A DNA stretch of 64,000 nt from Agapetus fuscipes (Eukaryota; Arthropoda; Insecta; Trichoptera; Glossosomatidae): positions 9,176,001-9,240,000 of the forward strand of contig OX637338.1 of assembly GCA_951799405.1 (NCBI GenBank), in the 5' to 3' direction. The notes beneath the pieces are model-generated. The model was not told the origin of the DNA. It did not search any database and saw nothing but the letters and a program-made list of their open reading frames with translations. This document shows, in pieces, positions 2,636 through 47,010 of this stretch. The position numbers and the translations under genes are program-made. Within the stretch, counting starts at the first letter, position 1, and each line of letters opens with the position of its first letter.

Positions 2636-2639
2636 ATAC

Positions 2640-3112
2640 TGTTATGTAAATATAAATATTGAAATAAGTATGGATAGTTATAGTTATAAGAATCCTCAAA
2701 AGTATTGGTAGGTAAGATCGATAATTATGTATAAGTGTAGAATTCTCTAGGCTAAGTAGGTATTTGTTATAATTATAGGAATACTGTGTTACATTTGTAG
2801 GTAGGATTTTGGTTGTATCTCTAGGTAGTACGTGAAGCGTCGAGAAGTAATAATTACTCTGGAACCGTCTGGCGACTTTAGTTCTGGATCATACTGCTCT
2901 GAAGAGTATAAAGGTGCGAATGGCCTGCAGAGCGGGCCAGTATCGTAGCGACTAACAAACACATCGAAGCCATCTGATCAGTGAACCGAAACCAATGGAA
3001 TAATCGAGAAAGTAGTGTGAAAATAAATTTTGTAACAGTGTAAAATAAATAACTATTGAAGAAGACCTGTGTATTTTTAATTTGAAGACAATTGAACCCT
3101 AATTTCGTAACA
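2640..3112 (+). repeat. 5' LTR
   Basis: This 473-bp repeat begins 'tgttatgtaaat' and ends 'tttcgtaaca'. It matches 6065-6537 at every base but one. It should contain the promoter and transcription start. I cannot place a TATA box with confidence, but 'gagtataaag' near 2896 is a candidate. Confidence 0.95.
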
Positions 3113-3408
3113 ATTGGCGTCAGGTGCGGAATTGTCAAGAAAAATTAAGATCTTCTGTCTAAAAATAAATAAAATAAATTAAATAAGTGTTAAAATGAAC
3201 TTTATTCAAATTGAACTTTGTGTGAACTGACTTTTGTGAAAACAAGTGTTTAAATAAATTTTTGTTAAAAGAAAAGACGCAAAAGCAAGTTGCTTATAAA
3301 TTCTGGAACATCATATGGAACATAATTCTGGACATAACATAATGACTATTTTACCGCATTGAGAAAGTCATCAAATTGGACCATAGTTTTTTTTTATTAT
3401 TGTGTGTG

Positions 3409-3443
<35 letters not shown>

Positions 3444-3783
3444 GAAAAATATTACAAAAGAACGTTCCAGATTCATCGAGAAAAAGTTTTTGAATAACTA
3501 TCCTTTGTTTACAAGTGTGTGAATGTACATTAAGTACCTACCTGTGTGTTTGAAAGACTTGAGACGAAATAAATAATTATGTACTATCAGACATTATTAT
3601 GTTAAAAATATTGGTGAATTAAAAATAAATATTAAAAGACAGTACCTACCTACCAATCAGTGTAATCAGACAAATTATTATTTTTGCTAAAGTACGTATT
3701 CAAAACAGCTATATATATAAAACTCAAAACTTGTATTAAATAAATTTAAAAATATTTTTGTTTTGAAGTAAATTTTGAAAAAA
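3113..3783 (+). other. Leader of LTR element with primer-binding-site-like start
   Basis: Starting at 3115, 'tggcgtcaggtgcgg' has the TGG expected of a site complementary to the CCA end of a tRNA. I cannot name the tRNA. The rest is a roughly 650-base AT-rich untranslated leader with a long A run at about 3412-3439. No coding sequence is seen before the Gag start. Confidence 0.6.
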
Positions 3784-4536
3784 ATGGCAACCAAAGTGAA
3801 CATCAAGGACCTCAAAGTCACTGAGCTTAAAAATGAGCTTCTGGAGAGGGACCTGGAGACCTCAGGAGGGAAGGCGGCCTTACAGGCACGCCTCATGGAG
3901 GCCTTAGAACAGTCAGGCGAAGACCCGGCATATTTTGTCATGGCGTCTGGAGGGGACCGCGCCTTGGACGAGCTAAACCTCAGCATCACCGGAAACTTCA
4001 CTTCCATGGAGGAGAAGATGGCTGACAACGCCAAGACTATGAAGGAGGACCTGGCAACCATGGAGGAGAAGATGACCAGCAACCTGACCGGGCTAGAGGA
4101 GAAGATGACTGGGCTGGAGGAGAAGATGACCAGCAACCTGACCGTGCTGGAGAAGAAAGTGGCAGAAAGCTCGCGAGCAATGTCAGAGATTGAGGCCCGT
4201 GTGGCAAGCCTGGAGGACCGTCTGCGTGCCGAGCTGGCTGACAAGTGCCAGATGGAGTCCACCAGAATCTCCCCCAAAGGCGGCCTTCACGACGAGACCG
4301 ACCAGGGATGCTCAACTCCAACCAGGGTCACAAGAGGGGATGATGACCCTTCCCTAGCAAAGCACAACCTCCCAACCTTCGACGGGAAGACGTCGTGGGA
4401 GGAATACTTGACCCTCTTTGAGACGGCTGCCATGATGGGAGCCTGGAGCCAGCAGAAGAAGGCTTCGGTTCAGCCTGTCGCTCCGAGGAGACGCTCTCAG
4501 GGTTCTGCAGGCCATACCCCTGGACAACCGTGGTGA
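3784..4536 (+). CDS. Gag-like protein, N-terminal part (SAP motif, coiled coil)
   Basis: The first AUG in frame is at 3784 (MATKVNIKDLK); the frame is open upstream only through a TTG. Residues about 7-42 read as a SAP-type DNA/RNA-binding helix pair (LKVTELKNELLERDL, GGKAALQARLMEAL). A coiled coil follows with a short repeat 'LEEKMT(S/G)NLT' (about residues 75-125). The end carries the start of a retrotransposon capsid-like region (LPTFDGKTSWEEYLTLFETA). The frame then runs out of homology near 4477-4481, and the capsid-like reading resumes in the +1 frame. The last 20 or so residues before the stop at 4536 are therefore off-frame. Either a one-base indel broke the gene or a programmed shift joins the two parts. 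Near-identical LTRs favour a recent lesion. No leader peptide is present. Confidence 0.8.
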   Translation: MATKVNIKDLKVTELKNELLERDLETSGGKAALQARLMEALEQSGEDPAYFVMASGGDRALDELNLSITGNFTSMEEKMADNAKTMKEDLATMEEKMTSNLTGLEEKMTGLEEKMTSNLTVLEKKVAESSRAMSEIEARVASLEDRLRAELADKCQMESTRISPKGGLHDETDQGCSTPTRVTRGDDDPSLAKHNLPTFDGKTSWEEYLTLFETAAMMGAWSQQKKASVQPVAPRRRSQGSAGHTPGQPW

Positions 4537-6064
4537 CTTTGGGCAGCTGAAGCAGCGCTTGGATATGCGCTATGGCCACAAGTGCCTGGAGCAGCTGTAC
4601 AAGTCGCAGCTGAACACAAGGGTGCAGAAGCCCAACGAGAGCCTCCAGGAGTTTGAGATGGACATCGTCCACCTAGTACGAGACGCTTACCCGACATTCC
4701 CTGATGACATCTGCGAGAGCTTGGCAGTGGACAAGTTCCTGAACGGATTGAGAGAATGGGAGACGCAGCAAGCAGTGAAGCTGGCTCTTCCGAAGACGTT
4801 GAACGAGGCGCTAAGCCGAGCTCTCGAATTTGAGGCTGTCAAACAGTCCATCAGGGGCCACGCCAGGGTTTGTGCAATCAAGGCAGAGGAGGTCAAACTA
4901 CCTACAACCGAGGAAATAATAGAAAAAGTGCTGCAGCAACTTGAGCCAACGAGACAGAAGGCGCACTGCTGGACGTGTGGCCAGCAAGGACACCTGAGCG
5001 CGAGGTGCCCAAAGTCTCAAGGACCGGAGAAATTGGAAGACGACCGCAAGGATGTAGAGACCACCATGGAGATGAACAAACGGCTGAGGAAACAGCTCCA
5101 GGATGCCGAGAGAAAGGTCAAAGTCATGGAGACGGAGAACAGGCAGCTGACGAAGAACTTGGCCAGCAGTGAAAGGGTCCGGCGAACAGCGGAGGCCGAG
5201 AGGGACGAGTTGCACGAGACTGTGCTGAGCCTGGAGAGACAGAACAAGGGGCTTAAGACTAAGCTCCAGCAGCTGGAAGCTGGGCAGGGGCCCAGGACGA
5301 AGGACACCATCGCCAACCTGGAGTCCAAGAACAGCAACACCAAGGAGGCGGGAGCTCGAATGAAGGATAACCACCGGCCAACTCAAAGAGCAAAGTGGTC
5401 AAACAATGACCAGCCCGCCCAGAGAGTACAAAAATGCGTCGCATCCAAAGAAGCGCCCCTGTTTGAGACGTTCTGGAGCAAGGTGCAAGAGGGACAGAAG
5501 ATTCGCCATGGGGTGACCACAGAAGTCCACAAGGACTTATTTGAGGTCACTGGGGACCACACACTGGCATGCAGTGTACCGGAAGATCTAGATATGTCTA
5601 GAGGAATTGCACGGGTCTTCCGATACAAATTCGGAGAACCGCAACCCTCGAGCAGCCCGCAAGGAAGAGCTCTGAGACTACCGAAGGGGCGTCAACAAGC
5701 ATACTGCCTGGTTGTCCCGGATTCCAGCAACCTGGAAGAGGACTACAAGGCATTGTGGGACGGCCTTGTTGAGCTGCGTGACTACATGTTGGAGGATCAG
5801 CAGGCGCGTCTGGCAATACCGAAGATGGGTGGCGGCCGCGCTAATCGAGACTGGCGGATAATCCGGAGTATGATTGAAGCAGTGTTCTCGGGAGTCGGCA
5901 TCAGCGTCATGGTGTGCTGCGAGCAAGCGCAGCCGAGAGCCAGTGGGGAGAAATCCGTGGACTGCCACTTCTTCCTGACCACAGGGTGTCGACGTGGATC
6001 AGCATGCCCCTACCTACACAGAGTCAAGACTGTTCCGGGACGAAACAGTCTAGGTGGGGGGTAG
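4481..6064 (+). CDS. Gag-like continuation: capsid, CCHC knuckle, coiled coil, macro domain, CCCH finger
   Basis: This frame picks up the capsid-like region at about 4481 (RGDALRVLQAIPLDN); its first AUG is 4565. Domains in order are as follows. Capsid-like helices lie up to about 4900. A zinc knuckle CWTCGQQGHLSARC (C-x2-C-x4-H-x4-C) lies at 4967-5008. A charged coiled coil spans about 5050-5310. A basic linker follows. A macro domain occupies about 5530-5925, with key blocks KDLFEV, the loop DLDMSRGIARVFRYKFGE, and the C-terminal IPKMGGG...DWRIIRSMIEAVF. A CCCH-type finger (C-x7-C-x5-C-x3-H) lies at 5963-6019. The stop codon abuts the 3' LTR. The macro region most resembles the TARG1/OARD1-type ADP-ribosyl-ester hydrolase fold. 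However, the catalytic-loop GAG is changed to SRG, and the acidic residue expected after the GxG loop is not in place, so hydrolysis is doubtful while ligand binding may persist. Macro domains are not a standard Gag component. Confidence 0.8.
   Translation, partial: LRGDALRVLQAIPLDNRGDFGQLKQRLDMRYGHKCLEQLYKSQLNTRVQKPNESLQEFEMDIVHLVRDAYPTFPDDICESLAVDKFLNGLREWETQQAVKLALPKTLNEALSRALEFEAVKQSIRGHARVCAIKAEEVKLPTTEEIIEKVLQQLEPTRQKAHCWTCGQQGHLSARCPKSQGPEKLEDDRKDVETTMEMNKRLRKQLQDAERKVKVMETENRQLTKNLASSERVRRTAEAERDELHETVLSLERQNKGLKTKLQQLEAGQGPRTKDTIANLESKNSNTKEAGARMKDNHRPTQRAKWSNNDQPAQRVQKCVASKEAPLFETFWSKVQEGQKIRHGVTTEVHKDLFEVTGDHTLACSVPEDLDMSRGIARVFRYKFGEPQPSSSPQGRALRLPKGRQQAYCLVVPDSSNLEEDYKALWDGLVELRDYMLEDQQARLAIPKMGGGRANRDWRIIRSMIEAVFSGVGISVMVCCEQAQPRASGEKSVDCHFFLTTGCRRGSACPYLHRVKTVPGRNSLGGG
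6049..6062 (+). other. Polypurine-like tract
   Basis: A G-rich run 'taggtggggggt' lies immediately before the 3' LTR, where plus-strand priming is expected. It overlaps the last codons and the stop of the Gag-macro frame. Confidence 0.6.
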
Positions 6065-6537
6065 TGTTATGTAAATATAAATATTGAAATAAGTATGGAT
6101 AGTTATAGTTATAAGAATCCTCAAAAGTATTGGTAGGTAAGATCGATAATTATGTATAAGTGTAGAATTCTCTAGGCTAAGTAGGTATTTGTTATAATTA
6201 TAGGAATACTGTGTTACATTTGTAGGTAGGATTTTGGTTGTATCTCTAGGTAGTACGTGAAGCGTCGAGAAGTAATAATTACTCTGGAACCGTCTGGCGA
6301 CTTTAGTTCTGGATCATACTGCTCTGAAGAGTATAAAGGTGCGAATGGCCTGCAGAGCGGGCCAGTATCGTAGCGACTAACAAACACATCGAAGCCATCT
6401 GATCAGTGAACCGAAACCAATGGAATAATCGAGAAAGTAGTGTGAAAATAAATTTTGTAACAGTGTAAAATAAATAACTATTGAAGAAGACCTGTGTATT
6501 TTTAATTTGAAGACAATTGAACCCTTATTTCGTAACA
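6065..6537 (+). repeat. 3' LTR
   Basis: Direct repeat of 2640-3112 with a single substitution (a to t at 6526 relative to 3101). It is followed by the target duplication 'atac'. Confidence 0.95.
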
Positions 6538-6541
6538 ATAC

Positions 6542-18864: not shown

Positions 18865-19502
18865 AAATGGTTATGCTTAATTCAAAGAGAGAAAAAGCTT
18901 GCCTGGCGGGATAGCCACAAGCCTGTGTAATTAAGAATAATTAATATTATTGTGCTGTGGTTTATTGTGTATACATTGTGAAAGGAATAAAAGTAAACAT
19001 ATTAAAGTGGCTGTTATATTATTAATTGTGTCAATCAGCAAGACAGAGAAGAAAAACCCTCACATTTTGTGAGGGTTTTTTCGTGAGTGCTACACAGTTT
19101 ATCAAGATTTATTATTTCGGGAATTACATTGTACACGCAGCCTTCGTCCAAATTCGACAACTGAAATTGACATTTGTGGATGGATGGGAGGTTTTTAATA
19201 AGACAATAATTACAATAATTTTTTTAAAGAAACATTTTTGAAACATAACCTACAACTTTTTTTGAAAAATTTGGAACAACAACAAAATTATTGGAAAGAA
19301 GAATTAAAAAATCAAAATTGGATACCTACCTACCTACCTGTAATACCTACCTGATGAACAACATGGCAGAAGACGTGAAATGGACAATTTACACTTTTAT
19401 ATGGACAATATTTTTTTCTGTTTTAATTTTTATGTTTTATAGCTGTATTTTTTATTTGTATTTTTAAACTCACTTTAGTTCTTAACATTTTGTTTTGTAG
19501 CA
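18865..19502 (+). other. Sequence upstream of RTE ORF; possible 5' UTR with a strong hairpin
   Basis: No coding domain. At 19052-19081 a perfect stem 'aaaaaccctcaca' / 'tgtgagggttttt' with a 4-base loop stands out. The RTE 5' border cannot be placed because no second full copy is in the window. Confidence 0.4.
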
Positions 19503-22500
19503 ATGGCCACCAACAATAATTTTAAATCTGTACATTGTGGAAATGCCACCACTAATTTTCATAGAAAGAATGAATGGGTTTTCGGGACATGGAATGTAAG
19601 GAAGATGAATGATTGCAAGGAGAAAGAAATTATGAATGTAATGAAAGAGAAACGAATAAAAGTAATGGGTGTGACAGAAACAAAAATGAAAGGGAATGGT
19701 GAGAAAGTATTAGCGAATGGTGAATTGTATATTTGGTCAGGTGTGGAAGATGGGAATGAAAGGCAGGGTGTAGGTGTGATTGTGAGTGAGTGTGTGAAGG
19801 GATGCATAGCGGGTTACCAAAGAATTTCTCCCAGGATTTTGGTTGTTAAATTGAAAATTAACAGTTTGAAACTTTTCTTGGTGACCTGTTATGCTCCTGT
19901 TGATTCAGAGTGTATGGAGGTGAGAATGAGTTTTTGGAATGAGCTGAATGCGGTTGTGCATGAAAGGAAGAATAATGAAAACATTGTAATTTTAGGTGAT
20001 ATGAATGGATGGATAGGTGCGCAGAGGGATGAATGTTTGAAAATTATTGGTCCTGGTGGGAGAGGTGTAGTCAATGATAATGGGCGACATCTGATTGCTT
20101 TGTGTGCGGAGCACAGTCTTTTTGCATCGAATACTTGGTTTCGGCATAAGGATGTGCATCTGTACACGAGGCAGATTGTGGGAAGTCGCACAATCATTGA
20201 CTACATCTGTGTGGATGAAAGACTGAGAGGAGCCGTAAGAGATAGCCGTGTCTACCGCGGGCCTGAAATAGGCAGTGATCACTATCTCTTATGTGCTAAA
20301 ATAATGCTTGGTGAAGTAAGAAAGAAGAAACGCAAGAAGCAAGTAAGAATGACTAGAATAAAAGTAGAAAGGCTGAATGAAGAAAATGTGAAAGAGAAGT
20401 ATGTATCAGAGCTCCACAAAATTTTAAGTGTAAATGAACTTGAGAAGAATGTGTGTGGAAAAGATATTGAAAGCATGTGGAAAGATCTGAAGGAAGGAAT
20501 GATTGAGTGTGCTAAAAAAGTATGTGGGGTAACGAAAGGTGGAAAATTGAAAGGAGATGCCTGGTGGAATGATAGAGTGAAAGAAGCTGTGAAAGTTAAG
20601 AAAAAGTGTTATGAAAATTGGCTGAATGATAGAAATGATAGAAAGCTAGAAGACGAATATAAGATAGCTAAGAGAATGGCAAAGACTATAATTTATGAAA
20701 GCAAGATGAATGAACAAAGAAAGATTGATGAAAGGATTAACAAAAGTTTCACCGACAGTAAGAAGGAATTTTGGAGGTGGATCAATGCGGATAGAAATAA
20801 ATCTTCTGCATTGACCACTCCGGGAGTCAAAAGTGCTGCCGGTGAGATGGTATGGGAGAATGAAGAAGTATGCAAGAGATGGAAGAACTATTTTCAAGAA
20901 ATTTTTGGCCAGGGTGAAAGAAGAATTTATGAACAGACAGATGAAGAGAATGAATTGAAGATTTTGAAAGAAGAAATGAAAGTGTCTATTTCACGTCTGA
21001 AGAATGGGAAGTCTGCTGGGTTTGATGGTATAAATGGTGAAATGTTGAAAGCAGGAGGTGAATGTGTGATAGATTGGATGTTTGAATTATGTAAGCTTTG
21101 TGTGAATGCAGGAGTGGTACCGATGGATTGGAGGAAGGCAGTCATTGTTCCCATTTACAAAGGTAAAGGGGACAAAAAAGACTGTCAGAACTTCAGACCA
21201 ATCAGTCTACTCAGTATACCAGGAAAAGTCTTCTGTAAGGTGATTATAAAAAATGTGATTCTGACTACTAGCAAAAGGGTTTCCGATATACAGTCCGGCT
21301 TTATGGCCGGTAGAGGCTGTGTTGATCAGATTTTCACTCTACGACAACTTGTTGAAAAACAATTGTCGGTGAGGGGGAAACTATTCACGGCCTTTGTGGA
21401 TCTGGAAAAGGCTTTTGACTCAGTGGACAGAGGTATGTTGTGGGATGTTTTGAAAGCATACGGAGTGAATGGAGCTCTACTCAATGCGGTGCATGCGAAC
21501 TATGAGAATAGTATGGCTTGCATTCGTATTGATGGTGAGTATAGTGAATGGTTTGAAGTTTTTAAGGGTGTAAGGCAAGGATGTGTGATGAGCCCATGGC
21601 TATTTAACATAGTCATGGACAAGTGTGTTCGAGATGCTAGACTTGATGATTGTGGAATAATGATAGGAGAGAGCAAAGTAAGCGTTCTACTGTATGCGGA
21701 TGATGCAGTCCTTGTATCTGATTCAGCAGTGGAATTGCAAATGATGCTCTCTAGATTGAACGAAGCTTTGAAAGGTAATAATTTGAAGTTGAATGCAAGA
21801 AAGACGAAAGTTTTGATTTTTGAAAGAGATGATGAAAATATGAATTATGAATTTAAAATTAATGGAATGAATGTTGATGTCGTAAATGAGTTTGTATATT
21901 TGGGAAGTAAGTTTGAAAAAGATGGAAGAATGGCCGGTGAATTTGAAAGAAGAATAATGAAAGGCAGGTGTGTACTGGGTGCGACCGCTTGCATCGCCAG
22001 GAACCAAAATCTCTCAAAAAATGTTAGATTGGCGGTGCACGGTGGTATACTAGTGCCAACCTTGATGTATGGAAGTGAAGCCTGGACGGTGAGTGAAAGG
22101 GAAATTAGTAAAGTCCATACAGTAGAAATGGACTATCTAAGATGTATGATTGGGAAAAAACGAAGTGACAGGGTGAGAAATGATTTTGTAAGAGAAGAAT
22201 GTGGTGTAAGGGAAAGTGTGAAAGTGAAGATTAAAAGAAGTATGTTAAGATGGTTCGGGCATTTGGAGAGAATGAGTGATGAAAGATTGACGAAGAAAGT
22301 ATATGTTGCTAGAATAGATGGATGTCGTGGTAGAGGAAGACCGAGAAAAGTATGGAAGGATCAAATCTCTGAAATAGCGAATGACTGGGATATCCAGAGT
22401 CATAATAAAAGGAGGACTTGTATGAAAAAGGTTATGACTCTGGATGAAATGAAAGAAGTATGCAAGGACAGGAAGAAGTGGCGGCTAATCTGCAATGTTG

Positions 22501-22508
22501 ATTTCTAA
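19503..22508 (+). CDS. RTE-clade endonuclease/reverse transcriptase, intact
   Basis: This 1001-residue protein nicks chromosomal DNA and copies its own RNA at the nick (target-primed reverse transcription). An AP-endonuclease-like domain covers about residues 25-265, with TWNVRKMN, the acidic TETK, LGDMNGWIG and the catalytic end SDHYLL. The reverse transcriptase spans about 480-770, with GKSAGFDGINGEMLK, FVDLEKAFDSVDR, GVRQGCVMSPWLFN and the active-site LLYADDAVL (about 730). The C-terminal part has LYGSEAWT-like, RWFGHLERM and GRGRPRKVWKDQI blocks that are characteristic of RTE and relatives. No RNase H or Gag-like ORF1 is seen, as usual for RTE. There is no stop or frameshift, so the copy may be active or very recent. 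The start is the first AUG of the open frame. Confidence 0.93.
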   Translation: MATNNNFKSVHCGNATTNFHRKNEWVFGTWNVRKMNDCKEKEIMNVMKEKRIKVMGVTETKMKGNGEKVLANGELYIWSGVEDGNERQGVGVIVSECVKGCIAGYQRISPRILVVKLKINSLKLFLVTCYAPVDSECMEVRMSFWNELNAVVHERKNNENIVILGDMNGWIGAQRDECLKIIGPGGRGVVNDNGRHLIALCAEHSLFASNTWFRHKDVHLYTRQIVGSRTIIDYICVDERLRGAVRDSRVYRGPEIGSDHYLLCAKIMLGEVRKKKRKKQVRMTRIKVERLNEENVKEKYVSELHKILSVNELEKNVCGKDIESMWKDLKEGMIECAKKVCGVTKGGKLKGDAWWNDRVKEAVKVKKKCYENWLNDRNDRKLEDEYKIAKRMAKTIIYESKMNEQRKIDERINKSFTDSKKEFWRWINADRNKSSALTTPGVKSAAGEMVWENEEVCKRWKNYFQEIFGQGERRIYEQTDEENELKILKEEMKVSISRLKNGKSAGFDGINGEMLKAGGECVIDWMFELCKLCVNAGVVPMDWRKAVIVPIYKGKGDKKDCQNFRPISLLSIPGKVFCKVIIKNVILTTSKRVSDIQSGFMAGRGCVDQIFTLRQLVEKQLSVRGKLFTAFVDLEKAFDSVDRGMLWDVLKAYGVNGALLNAVHANYENSMACIRIDGEYSEWFEVFKGVRQGCVMSPWLFNIVMDKCVRDARLDDCGIMIGESKVSVLLYADDAVLVSDSAVELQMMLSRLNEALKGNNLKLNARKTKVLIFERDDENMNYEFKINGMNVDVVNEFVYLGSKFEKDGRMAGEFERRIMKGRCVLGATACIARNQNLSKNVRLAVHGGILVPTLMYGSEAWTVSEREISKVHTVEMDYLRCMIGKKRSDRVRNDFVREECGVRESVKVKIKRSMLRWFGHLERMSDERLTKKVYVARIDGCRGRGRPRKVWKDQISEIANDWDIQSHNKRRTCMKKVMTLDEMKEVCKDRKKWRLICNVDF

Positions 22509-44804: not shown

Positions 44805-46848
44805 GGATCATCGGAGCCTTTTTTTTATTTTTTTTATTTTTTTTTTTTTCCATTGAGAGGGGAAAATCTTCAAAAGATTCCTGCCATTGTTTCCGCCGGC
44901 AGGATATGTGAGACTTTTACTCACTAAAAACCCCCCTCTGCATCTTGCCACACCCTGGAACTGCCGTCAAGCATGACATCAGAGTGTGGTGTGTCTTTAC
45001 ATGCACAGCATGTCTTCACATTTCAGTTGCGTCAATTGGCAAATCTACACTATCTACATTGCTCTAAGACTACTATCTACATTTATACTACTATCAACAG
45101 AAACTACATTTTGGCGGGTCGTGTTCATCCTTCGCCTTACGCGCTCGGCATCCTCCTTCTCTCCGATCACGCGAGAGGAAAAGGTATCCCAGGCCCGCCA
45201 GTTCTCTTCTGATTGGAGCATTGACGGCACCACCATGTCCAGGTCCAGTCGATCGACCACAATGGTTGCCATTAATGACCCCCTGTGGTCCGCCCAGGCA
45301 GGACACGACAGTAGCGTGTGGTCCGCGTCATCATTTTCTGAGTCGCAGTGCCAGCATGCTGCAGTTGCTTCTTTTCCTATACGGTGTAGGAAAAATCCGA
45401 AACAACCGTGTCCACTCAGCATCTGCGTGAGCCGGTAGTTCAGGCAGCCATGCTTCCTCGAGTAACAGAGCTCGAGTTGGCTGACAAGCCTGTTCGTCCA
45501 GCGTCCTTTAGATGCCGAGTTCCAGCGATCCTGCCACTTTGACAGCGTCAGTTTCCTATTGTGCGGTCCCTTACCTGATTCATAGACCGCTTTGCGCTCA
45601 AGCGCCAGCAGGTCTATGGGTGGAGAAGAAGCCAGCACCAATGCCGCTTCTTCGGATATGGTGCGGTAGCCGGAGATTACTCTCAGCGCGCTTCTTCTCT
45701 GGACGGCAGCCATCTTCTTCCTGTACAGCTCTGTCTCAAGCGAGTGCGCCCAGATGGGTGCCCCATACAGAAGTGTGGAGTGGACCACCTCATGCAATAG
45801 TTTCCTCCTGCATGATTTAGGTCCACCCACGTTCGGCATGAGCCTCCTCAACTGTATCGCTGCTCCGCTTGCCTTTGCAGCCGCCAGCTCGATGTGTTCT
45901 CCGAAAAGAAGACCACGATCGAGTTGGATTCCAAGGTACCGCAGTGATTTTGCCAATGGCACCTCAAAACCCTCTAGCAGCAGCTTAGGCAGCAGAGGTC
46001 GTCGCTTTCGACAGAACAGTACGGCTTCTGTCTTCTGCACGGCAAGCTGCAATCCGGCTCTGTCAAGCCAGGCCTTCACCCGCCTGAGTGCCTCGTTACC
46101 TGTAATTTCTATGTCGCGAGAAGTCCTTCCCTCAATCATCACTGCGATGTCGTCCGCAAAAGCAACAATGCTCGACCCCTCAGGCATGTCCGTCCGCAGT
46201 AGACCATCGTATAAAGCATTCCACAAGGTCGGTCCTAGGACCGATCCCTGCGGGACGCCAGACGTGATCCGCCGCTTTTCTTCCACACCGGAGGGGCCGT
46301 GCCGATACTCAAGACTTCGGCCATCAAAGTAACTCTCAAGCATGGCCATCAGATAGTAGGGCACGCGGAAGCTCTCTCTCAGCGCTCTGAGGATTAATTC
46401 CCATCGCGCCGAGTTAAAAGCGTTCCGGATGTCCAGCGCTACCATGACAACCCGTCGGTGGCTCTTCACCGTGCCCTGCCATGCTTGTCGGATAACGCTG
46501 ACAACGTGCCCAACTGCGTCAATCGTAGATCTGCCCCGCCTGAAGCCGTACTGTCTGTCGGAGAGACCCCGCTCCGGATCCTCCAGGATTGGCTGAAGTC
46601 TCCCGAGCAGAAGCCGCTCAAGGAGCTTTCCGAAGCCGTCCAGCATGCACAACGGTCTAAAAGACGAAGGTCCGTCCGCGACTGCCTTTTTGAGAATAAG
46701 GACAAGCCTTTGTCTCTTACAAGCATCACCAACGAGACCCTCCTCCAAGCACGCATTGTACACCCCAAGCAGAACCTCGGGAAACCCCTGGGCCACTAGC
46801 AGCACAATCTCATTTGGGACTTCGTCAGGTCCAGGGATCATCGGAGCC
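44805..46848 (-). mobile_element. 5'-truncated R1-clade non-LTR retrotransposon with 14-bp target duplication
   Basis: The body is 44819-46834, between two copies of 'ggatcatcggagcc' (44805-44818, 46835-46848). Its 3' end lies on the left as a T-rich run (44819-44850, a poly-A tail on the reverse strand), then a 3' UTR of about 200 bases. The 5' end stops just before the reverse-transcriptase core, so the endonuclease and ORF1 are missing. It is much richer in GC than its surroundings. Confidence 0.88.
45054..46834 (-). pseudogene. R1-clade reverse transcriptase, N-terminally truncated
   Basis: The frame is open for about 590 element-derived codons but lacks a start of its own; codons further upstream come from the flanking target. 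It begins at PGPDEVPNE (the usual RT entry motif) and continues with YGFRRGRSTIDAV, VALDIRNAFNSARW, SGVPQGSVLGPTLWN and the active site FADD (46149-46160). A thumb/connector region follows (LRYLGIQLD, LLYGAPIWA), then a cysteine-histidine motif CWHC...H-x4-C near 45300-45356, typical of the R1 group downstream of RT. Without an endonuclease domain it cannot move by itself. There is no internal stop, so the truncation happened at insertion. Confidence 0.88.
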
Positions 46849-47010
46849 TGGAAAAGATGGTTGTGACCCAAAGGCGCATGGCATTGTGAACACCCAGAAT
46901 CCAAATTAAGGTGGCTGGGTGAAGAGTCGAGGAGCGTACATAGGAGGAAGACGTCGGATATGCAGCGATTGCTGCGGTTAATCTATGTAGGCAGCCTGTT
47001 GATTACTTAT
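46849..47010. repeat. Target-side repeat flanking the R1-clade insertion
   Basis: Together with 44790-44818 this reconstitutes the uninterrupted target. It resembles the reverse strand of 1640-1815: shared agcctggaaaa-atggtt, aaaggcgcatg-like and aaggtggctgg blocks. Confidence 0.5.

What the first reader, a model, noticed from the sequence alone, without database searches (positions are those of the whole stretch)
3784..6064. Gag-only LTR retrotransposon carrying a macro domain and a CCCH finger
A recently inserted LTR element has no pol and instead continues its Gag past the zinc knuckle into a coiled coil, a macro (ADP-ribose-binding) domain and a CCCH finger. Macro domains remove or read ADP-ribose marks used in DNA repair and antiviral responses. 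A transposon that packages one could counter host ADP-ribosylation, or use ADP-ribose binding to localise. The domain reading rests on visible motifs (KDLFEV, MSRGIARVFRYKFGE, IPKMGGG...SMIEAVF) compared with the TARG1/OARD1-type family. I know of no published description of this combination in a Gag, but cannot search.
Basis: partly seen in the sequence, partly recalled or inferred. Interest (0 to 1): 0.88.

Follow-up and report, generated by a model that had tools for sequence, protein, structure and literature searches.

The report
Jumping-gene integrase with ADP-ribose-binding-type tail
A young, very abundant insect jumping gene carries a protein domain of the kind that recognises ADP-ribose, a cellular damage and defence mark; the domain belongs to the tail of the element family's integrase, and the copy in this window is a shortened relative that joined that tail to its capsid protein through what looks like a spliced piece of the host's own myosin.

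Summary
Observation largely right, interpretation incomplete. The segment is a TARG1/OARD1-type macro domain (PDB phmmer E 1.4e-10; two other families 1.4e-18 and 2.3e-20) followed by a CCCH finger, in a young LTR element (LTRs 2640-3112/6065-6537, 1 mismatch of 473, TSD ATAC). Three corrections. (1) In this copy the Gag frame is broken (ORFs 3784-4536 and 4436-6064); 37 of 39 copies examined are open from Gag start to macro. (2) The macro-CCCH block is not a Gag invention: it is the C-terminal tail of Pol, just after integrase, in an autonomous Ty3/gypsy partner (126 of 126 scored integrase hits >=99% identical, 97 with a 1422-aa frame; tails read in 13). The window family is a non-autonomous derivative. 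(3) Its coiled coil resembles a spliced piece of the host's non-muscle/smooth-type myosin II heavy chain (82% over 101 bp). A second gypsy family has the same tail; a third has a TARG1-like macro with both catalytic residues between RNase H and integrase. In the window's lineage both residues are replaced, and the domain is under purifying selection (dN/dS about 0.17, dS saturated). Best mechanism, inferred: a reader tail steering integration, as proposed for chromovirus chromodomains; counter-defence is the main rival.

The parts
2636..2639 (.). target-site duplication ATAC (left)
2640..3112 (+). 5' LTR, 473 bp, TG...CA
   Evidence: 472 of 473 identical to the 3' LTR
3113..3783 (+). leader; likely primer-binding site from 3115 (TGGCGTCAGGTGCGG); the tRNA was not identified
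   Evidence: sequence; 95.8% identical leader in the autonomous copy L048
3784..4536 (+). ORF 1, start of Gag: SAP domain (3802-3909), coiled-coil repeats, start of capsid; frame ends here in this copy
   Evidence: Pfam SAP 1.3e-8
4436..6064 (+). ORF 2 in another frame: rest of capsid, zinc knuckle, coiled coil, macro, CCCH
4967..5014 (+). CCHC zinc knuckle
   Evidence: Pfam zf-CCHC E 0.00098, just under its cut-off; retroviral Gag knuckles in PDB, best E 0.00014
5028..5338 (+). piece like spliced tail of host non-muscle/smooth-type myosin II heavy chain
   Evidence: blastn to host exons in L077/L078; Pfam Myosin_tail_1 2.2e-9, slightly under its cut-off
5406..5518 (+). linker of the integrase tail
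   Evidence: 0 mismatches of 659 (5406-6064) to L047:3747-4405
5519..5914 (+). macro domain, TARG1/OARD1 type, catalytic K84 and D125 replaced
5951..6019 (+). CCCH zinc finger, C-x7-C-x5-C-x3-H
   Evidence: Pfam zf-CCCH; same spacing in family B
6052..6061 (+). purine-rich stretch AGGTGGGGGG, likely polypurine tract
   Evidence: sequence
6065..6537 (+). 3' LTR
6538..6541 (.). target-site duplication ATAC (right)

Best explanation
Shown: the window holds a member, without pol, of a Ty3/gypsy system. The autonomous partner is LTR - Gag (SAP, coiled coil, capsid, CCHC) - Pol in another frame (protease, RT, RNase H, integrase) with a macro domain and a CCCH finger as C-terminal tail of Pol - LTR. 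The derivative keeps both ends, Gag and the macro-CCCH tail and has, in place of protease to integrase, a short piece that resembles spliced host myosin II heavy-chain mRNA, in frame in 37 of 39 copies examined. Inferred: the derivative is mobilised in trans by the partner's enzymes, and tails and LTRs are shuffled by template switching. Inferred and less sure: the tail is a reader. It sits where the chromodomain sits in chromovirus integrases, lacks the TARG1 catalytic pair, and would tether the integration complex (or, in the derivative, Gag) to ADP-ribosylated chromatin or nucleic acid, the CCCH finger adding RNA or DNA contact.
For: Partner: L047/L048, LTR pair 0 mismatches of 472, Pfam protease/RT/RNase H/integrase/SH3 then CCCH; 126 of 126 scored integrase hits (2260 candidates) >=99% identical, 97 with frame 1422 aa by my count; 12 of 12 further tails fetched carry linker, macro, CCCH in frame. 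Shared ends: LTR 96.2%, leader 95.8%, 5406-6064 identical. Domain: TARG1 hits 1.4e-10, 1.4e-18 (family B), 2.3e-20 (family C). Selection: macro A/B dN/dS 0.17 with dS saturated, B/B 0.17, C/C 0.085. Catalytic pair replaced in A and B, D20 and G123 kept. Myosin. Youth: of 33 copies with both LTRs complete, 12 with 0 and 15 with 1 mismatch.
Against: No ADP-ribose binding shown; structure predictions were poor. 27 of 27 readable TSDs are NTAN, a DNA-level preference that needs no reader. The macro part evolves faster than integrase (dN 0.43 against 0.11), which also fits an arms race or weaker constraint. SCO6735 lacks both TARG1 residues and is still a hydrolase (PMC9411070, passages), so 'reader' is not forced. 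Trans-mobilisation is inferred from shared ends only. The derivative's open frames may reflect youth alone. The copies fetched are the best-scoring ones, so intactness and youth are biased upward.
Confidence: 0.5

Rival explanations
1. Counter-defence: the domain removes or masks ADP-ribose put on element proteins or nucleic acid by host PARPs.
For: TARG1 class is a hydrolase class; family C keeps both catalytic residues (K84 and D125 equivalents) and lies inside Pol; macro part evolves faster than integrase.
Against: Families A and B replace both residues (P or R, and A); family C has S for D20; the tail position beside integrase suggests an integration role.
Confidence: 0.25
2. The macro-CCCH tail is an RNA/DNA-binding or assembly module that no longer depends on ADP-ribose.
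For: CCCH finger (RNA-binding kind, recalled) with identical spacing in A and B; the tail is kept in a Gag fusion as well as in Pol.
Against: D20 and G123 of TARG1 are kept in A and B.
Confidence: 0.15
3. In the window's derivative the tail is a by-product: the 3' end is kept for cis signals (polypurine tract, LTR), and the open Gag-myosin-macro frame has no function. This can be true together with the best explanation for the partner's integrase.
For: Copies are very young, so open frames need no selection; capsid, linker, macro and LTR blocks differ in divergence as expected from recombination; variants among copies are too few to show constraint.
Against: 37 of 39 copies, and 132 of 150 scored hits with frames of 700-834 aa by my count, are open; two versions of the myosin piece exist (L050 and L058 about 90% identical to the window's).
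Confidence: 0.45

Closest known systems
TARG1/OARD1 (C6orf130), TARG1/ALC1-like macrodomain class
   Same: The only solved-structure family hit at E <= 0.5 and at E <= 0.001; nearly the whole domain aligned; D20 and G123 kept in A and B
   Different: 29% identity in the window copy; K84 and D125 replaced in families A and B, kept in C
Chromoviruses (Ty3/gypsy with a chromodomain at the integrase C-terminus; PMC3605345, start of abstract seen in the listing)
   Same: Ty3/gypsy element with a reader-type domain fused behind integrase
   Different: Macro plus CCCH instead of a chromodomain; targeting not shown
[quoted passage not shown] 2009 as cited in PMC4977317; passage of the review seen; the original not seen)
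   Same: LTR retroelement carrying a macro domain
   Different: There additional ORFs in vertebrate ERVs; here a C-terminal integrase extension, or an insert between RNase H and integrase, in Ty3/gypsy elements, and a Gag fusion
Non-autonomous and host-gene-capturing LTR elements (recalled as a class; PMC3532108, an insect TRIM family, seen only as a listing)
   Same: LTRs kept, pol lost
   Different: Gag kept, with a myosin II tail piece fused in frame to a macro-CCCH tail

Membership tests
Ty3/gypsy LTR retrotransposon (partner family A) | Pol order protease-RT-RNase H-integrase, between LTRs | tested here: met
   L047:137-4402 Pfam order, DTG, YLDD, H2C2, D..35..E; LTRs
Ty3/gypsy LTR retrotransposon (window element itself) | own pol | tested here: not met
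   No pol domain in the two ORFs; it is a non-autonomous derivative
TARG1/ALC1-like macrodomain | sequence similarity over the domain | tested here: met
TARG1/ALC1-like macrodomain | macro fold | tested here: inconclusive
   pLDDT 48.0 and 39.6, no match at E <= 0.001
TARG1-type hydrolase | Lys84/Asp125 catalytic pair | tested here: not met
   P and A in the window; R and A in family B; K and D in family C. Role of the pair: PMC9411070 passages
ADP-ribose binder | binding in vitro | not testable with these tools
   -
Chromovirus | chromodomain at integrase C-terminus | tested here: not met
   Pfam lists no chromodomain in L047:137-4402 at E <= 0.01

The most novel reading that the evidence does not exclude
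Ty3/gypsy elements have recruited TARG1-type macro domains in two places of Pol, as an integrase tail that reads ADP-ribose to choose or reach integration sites (families A and B) and as a probably active eraser between RNase H and integrase (family C); the tail is useful enough that a Gag-only parasite of the system keeps it, now tethered by a captured host myosin coiled coil.
Probability: 0.3. Interest if true: 0.92.

Novelty: new variant of a known kind. Interest (0 to 1): 0.78.

Why it matters
Host ADP-ribosylation marks DNA breaks, active chromatin and antiviral responses (recalled). Retroelement integrases with an ADP-ribose-reader-type tail, kept under purifying selection in two related families with many intact young copies, and a separate family with a catalytic-type domain in Pol, would make the link between PARP signalling and retroelement integration directly testable in an insect. 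The derivative also looks like a case of an LTR element carrying a spliced piece of host coding sequence in frame.

Tried and rejected
Chance or profile artefact: rejected, since three diverged element families hit the same TARG1 structures. Ordinary Gag domain: rejected for 5447-5926 (Pfam 0 families). Macro domain taken recently from this host's own gene: not supported; the TARG1-like exon (L083) is 46% identical to human TARG1 but 22-28% to the element domains. One or two captures: open; an unrooted 7-sequence tree puts A/B with C against TARG1 and host at support 78 only. dN/dS among copies of the window family: too few changes to be useful (variants per site, N over S: 0.33 macro, 0.42 capsid, 0.33 coiled-coil stretch, 1.24 CCCH). 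Between window family and partner the macro part has 0-1 synonymous and 1-2 non-synonymous changes of 408 nt while the linker has 7 and 21-23 of 111: recombination, not a selection test. Between A and B, integrase, linker and CCCH gave no ratio because synonymous change is saturated. Protein database: macro-CCCH region of the 542-aa ORF 0 hits among 915 candidates; macro piece alone 1 hit among 10 candidates, P0002, a partner-type tail; Gag half 12 hits, 11 with SAP, of which 10 end just after the zinc knuckle and P0010 runs on into an integrase-like part. Viral contigs: three scans, no relatives. PHROGs and NCBIfam: macro-type hits to the second half only (phrog_335 5.3e-9, DarG 3.1e-5). A search of the genome with P0010 was asked twice, not answered, and dropped; copy number of family C was asked twice and not answered. 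Literature: 10 searches, read as listings except for passages of PMC4977317 and PMC9411070; the only retroelement-with-macro report noticed is the fish ERV remark in PMC4977317. Other listed papers were not opened.

Full report
What is in the window. The element is 2640-6537: two LTRs of 473 bp with one mismatch, TG...CA ends, target-site duplication ATAC. The internal part has no pol. Two overlapping frames code: 3784-4536 with a SAP domain (1.3e-8) and 4436-6064 with zinc knuckle, a coiled coil and a CCCH finger. Pfam gives no family for 5447-5926, but a search against solved structures gives human TARG1/OARD1 (five sequences, best 1.4e-10) over residues 25-156 of the piece; the only other row up to E 10 is an unrelated protein at 0.53. 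The NCBIfam DarG model (3.1e-5) and phrog_335 (5.3e-9), both matching its second half, agree.

Copies. A DNA search of the genome (618 Mb, 148 contigs) scored 40 of 2054 candidates. I fetched 38 stretches besides the window (L009-L046), chosen as the best matches, so biased to young copies. In 37 of 39 the frame is open from the aligned Gag start through the macro domain, 706-806 aa; the two exceptions are the window copy and L031; the codon at the aligned start reads ATG in 35 of 39. Of 39, 33 have two complete LTRs: 12 with 0, 15 with 1, 2 with 2, 3 with 3, 1 with 4 mismatches, gaps not counted. 27 of 33 show a 4-bp duplication, all NTAN; the other six have an extra 44 bp before the 3' LTR match, read as a repeat of the LTR start that hides the border (the 27 were picked by hand). 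A protein search with macro-CCCH scored 150 of 1400 candidates, all >=99% identical; by my count 132 have frames of 700-834 aa, 17 shorter, one 1422. The 15 shorter ones other than L031 and the window were read upstream: 15 of 15 have at least part of the coiled coil, none an integrase match.

The partner. The copy with the 1422-aa frame (L047, with L048 upstream; element 7255 bp, LTR pair 0 mismatches of 472) is an autonomous Ty3/gypsy element: Gag with SAP, ending '...QAAEN' after the knuckle, then Pol, by my frame count in the -1 frame, with protease, RT, RNase H, H2C2 and integrase core, the integrase C-terminal SH3/p58 domains to residue 1199, then linker, macro, CCCH at 1386-1408. A PDB search of that tail gives TARG1 again (3.3e-10). 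Window 5406-6064 is identical to it (0 of 659), while a capsid piece differs by 33 of 450, LTR by 3.8%, leader by 4.2%. A search with the integrase end scored 126 of 2260 candidates, all >=99% identical; by my count 97 have exactly 1422 aa and five 1834-1861 aa, as if Gag and Pol were in one frame. The tails of 12 others were fetched; 12 of 12 continue in frame through linker, macro and CCCH, and all 12 are followed by an LTR match, partial or in pieces in L064 and L071. Their linker differs from the window's at 7 synonymous and 21-23 non-synonymous sites of 111 nt, while the macro part differs at 1-3 of 408; P0002 is of this type. Such sharp borders point to recombination between the two kinds. 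Among the 39 derivative copies, pairwise differences of blocks are nearly uncorrelated (r -0.11 to 0.28 in 20 of 21 block pairs; the exception, 5' LTR with leader at 0.94, I take to come from truncated or misaligned rows, not checked).

The coiled coil. Pfam calls it Myosin_tail_1 (2.2e-9, 36.3 bits, cut-off 38.1). PDB matches are weak but point to myosin II: Myosin-10 1654-1736 (0.0065), and for the second half Myosin-11 1795-1835 (0.021); a designed coiled coil scores better in both searches (0.0055 and 0.00072). The host's own myosin-tail genes lie on C13 and C9. The C13 gene is of the non-muscle/smooth type (one exon: Myosin-11 1.2e-21, against 4.3e-5 for muscle Myosin-4). The element's DNA matches C13 exons in order: 75% over 52, 17 of 19, 82% over 101 (E 5e-24), 78% over 80 (E 9e-14), 79% over 38 bp; the C9 gene gives only 15-base matches (E 0.29). 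In the host the blocks lie about 0.4 to 5 kb apart with sequence like splice sites beside some of them; in the element they are contiguous, with roughly 70 myosin codons missing before the fourth block (the 70 from the PDB positions). I read this as capture of spliced mRNA followed by divergence.

More families. Pfam's Macro model finds three fragments at two places in the host genome (9 of 9 candidates scored); the two places show no similarity to the element's domain. The DarG model scored 119 of 971 candidates; by matched range, 46 are of one type (B), 9 of another (C), 3 are short frames, and 61 are the rest, many with family A's frame lengths (my count). Sequence was read for 2 of 46 B, 2 of 9 C and 2 of 3 short frames. 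B (L081): integrase 82% identical to A (235 of 286), then linker, macro (51%), CCCH with the same spacing; TARG1 1.4e-18; L085 shows the tail only. C (L082, L084): macro between RNase H and H2C2-integrase, TARG1 2.3e-20 (L082), K84 and D125 equivalents kept, D20 replaced by S. Short frames (L083, L086): a TARG1-like exon, 46% to human TARG1 (L083), presumably the host gene.

Selection and mechanism. A/B macro: pS 0.73 (saturated), pN 0.33, dN/dS about 0.17; B/B 0.17 on 11 changes; C/C 0.085 with pS 0.69. So the domain is constrained as protein in these comparisons. A and B have lost the TARG1 catalytic Lys and Asp (PMC9411070, passages seen, for their role) but keep D20 and G123. An enzyme of this class without the pair is known (same paper), so loss of activity is likely, not certain. 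I commit to a reader tail on integrase, by position like the chromodomain of chromoviruses; binding, targeting and trans-mobilisation are inferred. For the Gag fusion in the window family I cannot separate function from by-product. The host is taken to be a moth or butterfly from chromosome number and size only; no name was available.

Noticed in passing
L082:1351-1776 and L084: A different gypsy lineage with a TARG1-like macro domain, both catalytic residues kept, between RNase H and integrase; 9 of 119 scored hits have this type by matched range.
   Followed up: partly
G000, integrase hits: Five of 126 partner copies have frames of 1834-1861 aa, as if Gag and Pol were fused in one frame.
   Followed up: no
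L012, L014, L015, L018, L025, L031, L034, L039, L047 (LTR start): An extra 44 bp (a tandem repeat of the LTR start where tested, L047) before the 3' LTR in some copies of both the derivative and the partner.
   Followed up: partly
window 4007-4157: 54-bp repeats in the N-terminal coiled coil; copies differ in length here, which probably explains the 706-834 aa range.
   Followed up: partly
L050, L058: A second version of the myosin-like piece, about 90% identical and 3 codons longer.
   Followed up: no
L023: Two derivative copies in tandem that share an LTR.
   Followed up: no
window 19479-22508 (+): Open 1009-aa frame with endonuclease and reverse transcriptase domains (non-LTR element).
   Followed up: no
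window 45054-46982 (-): 642-aa open frame with a reverse transcriptase domain.
   Followed up: no
L083, L086: TARG1-like exon on contigs C52 and C31; one search lists three such places in the assembly, two were read.
   Followed up: partly
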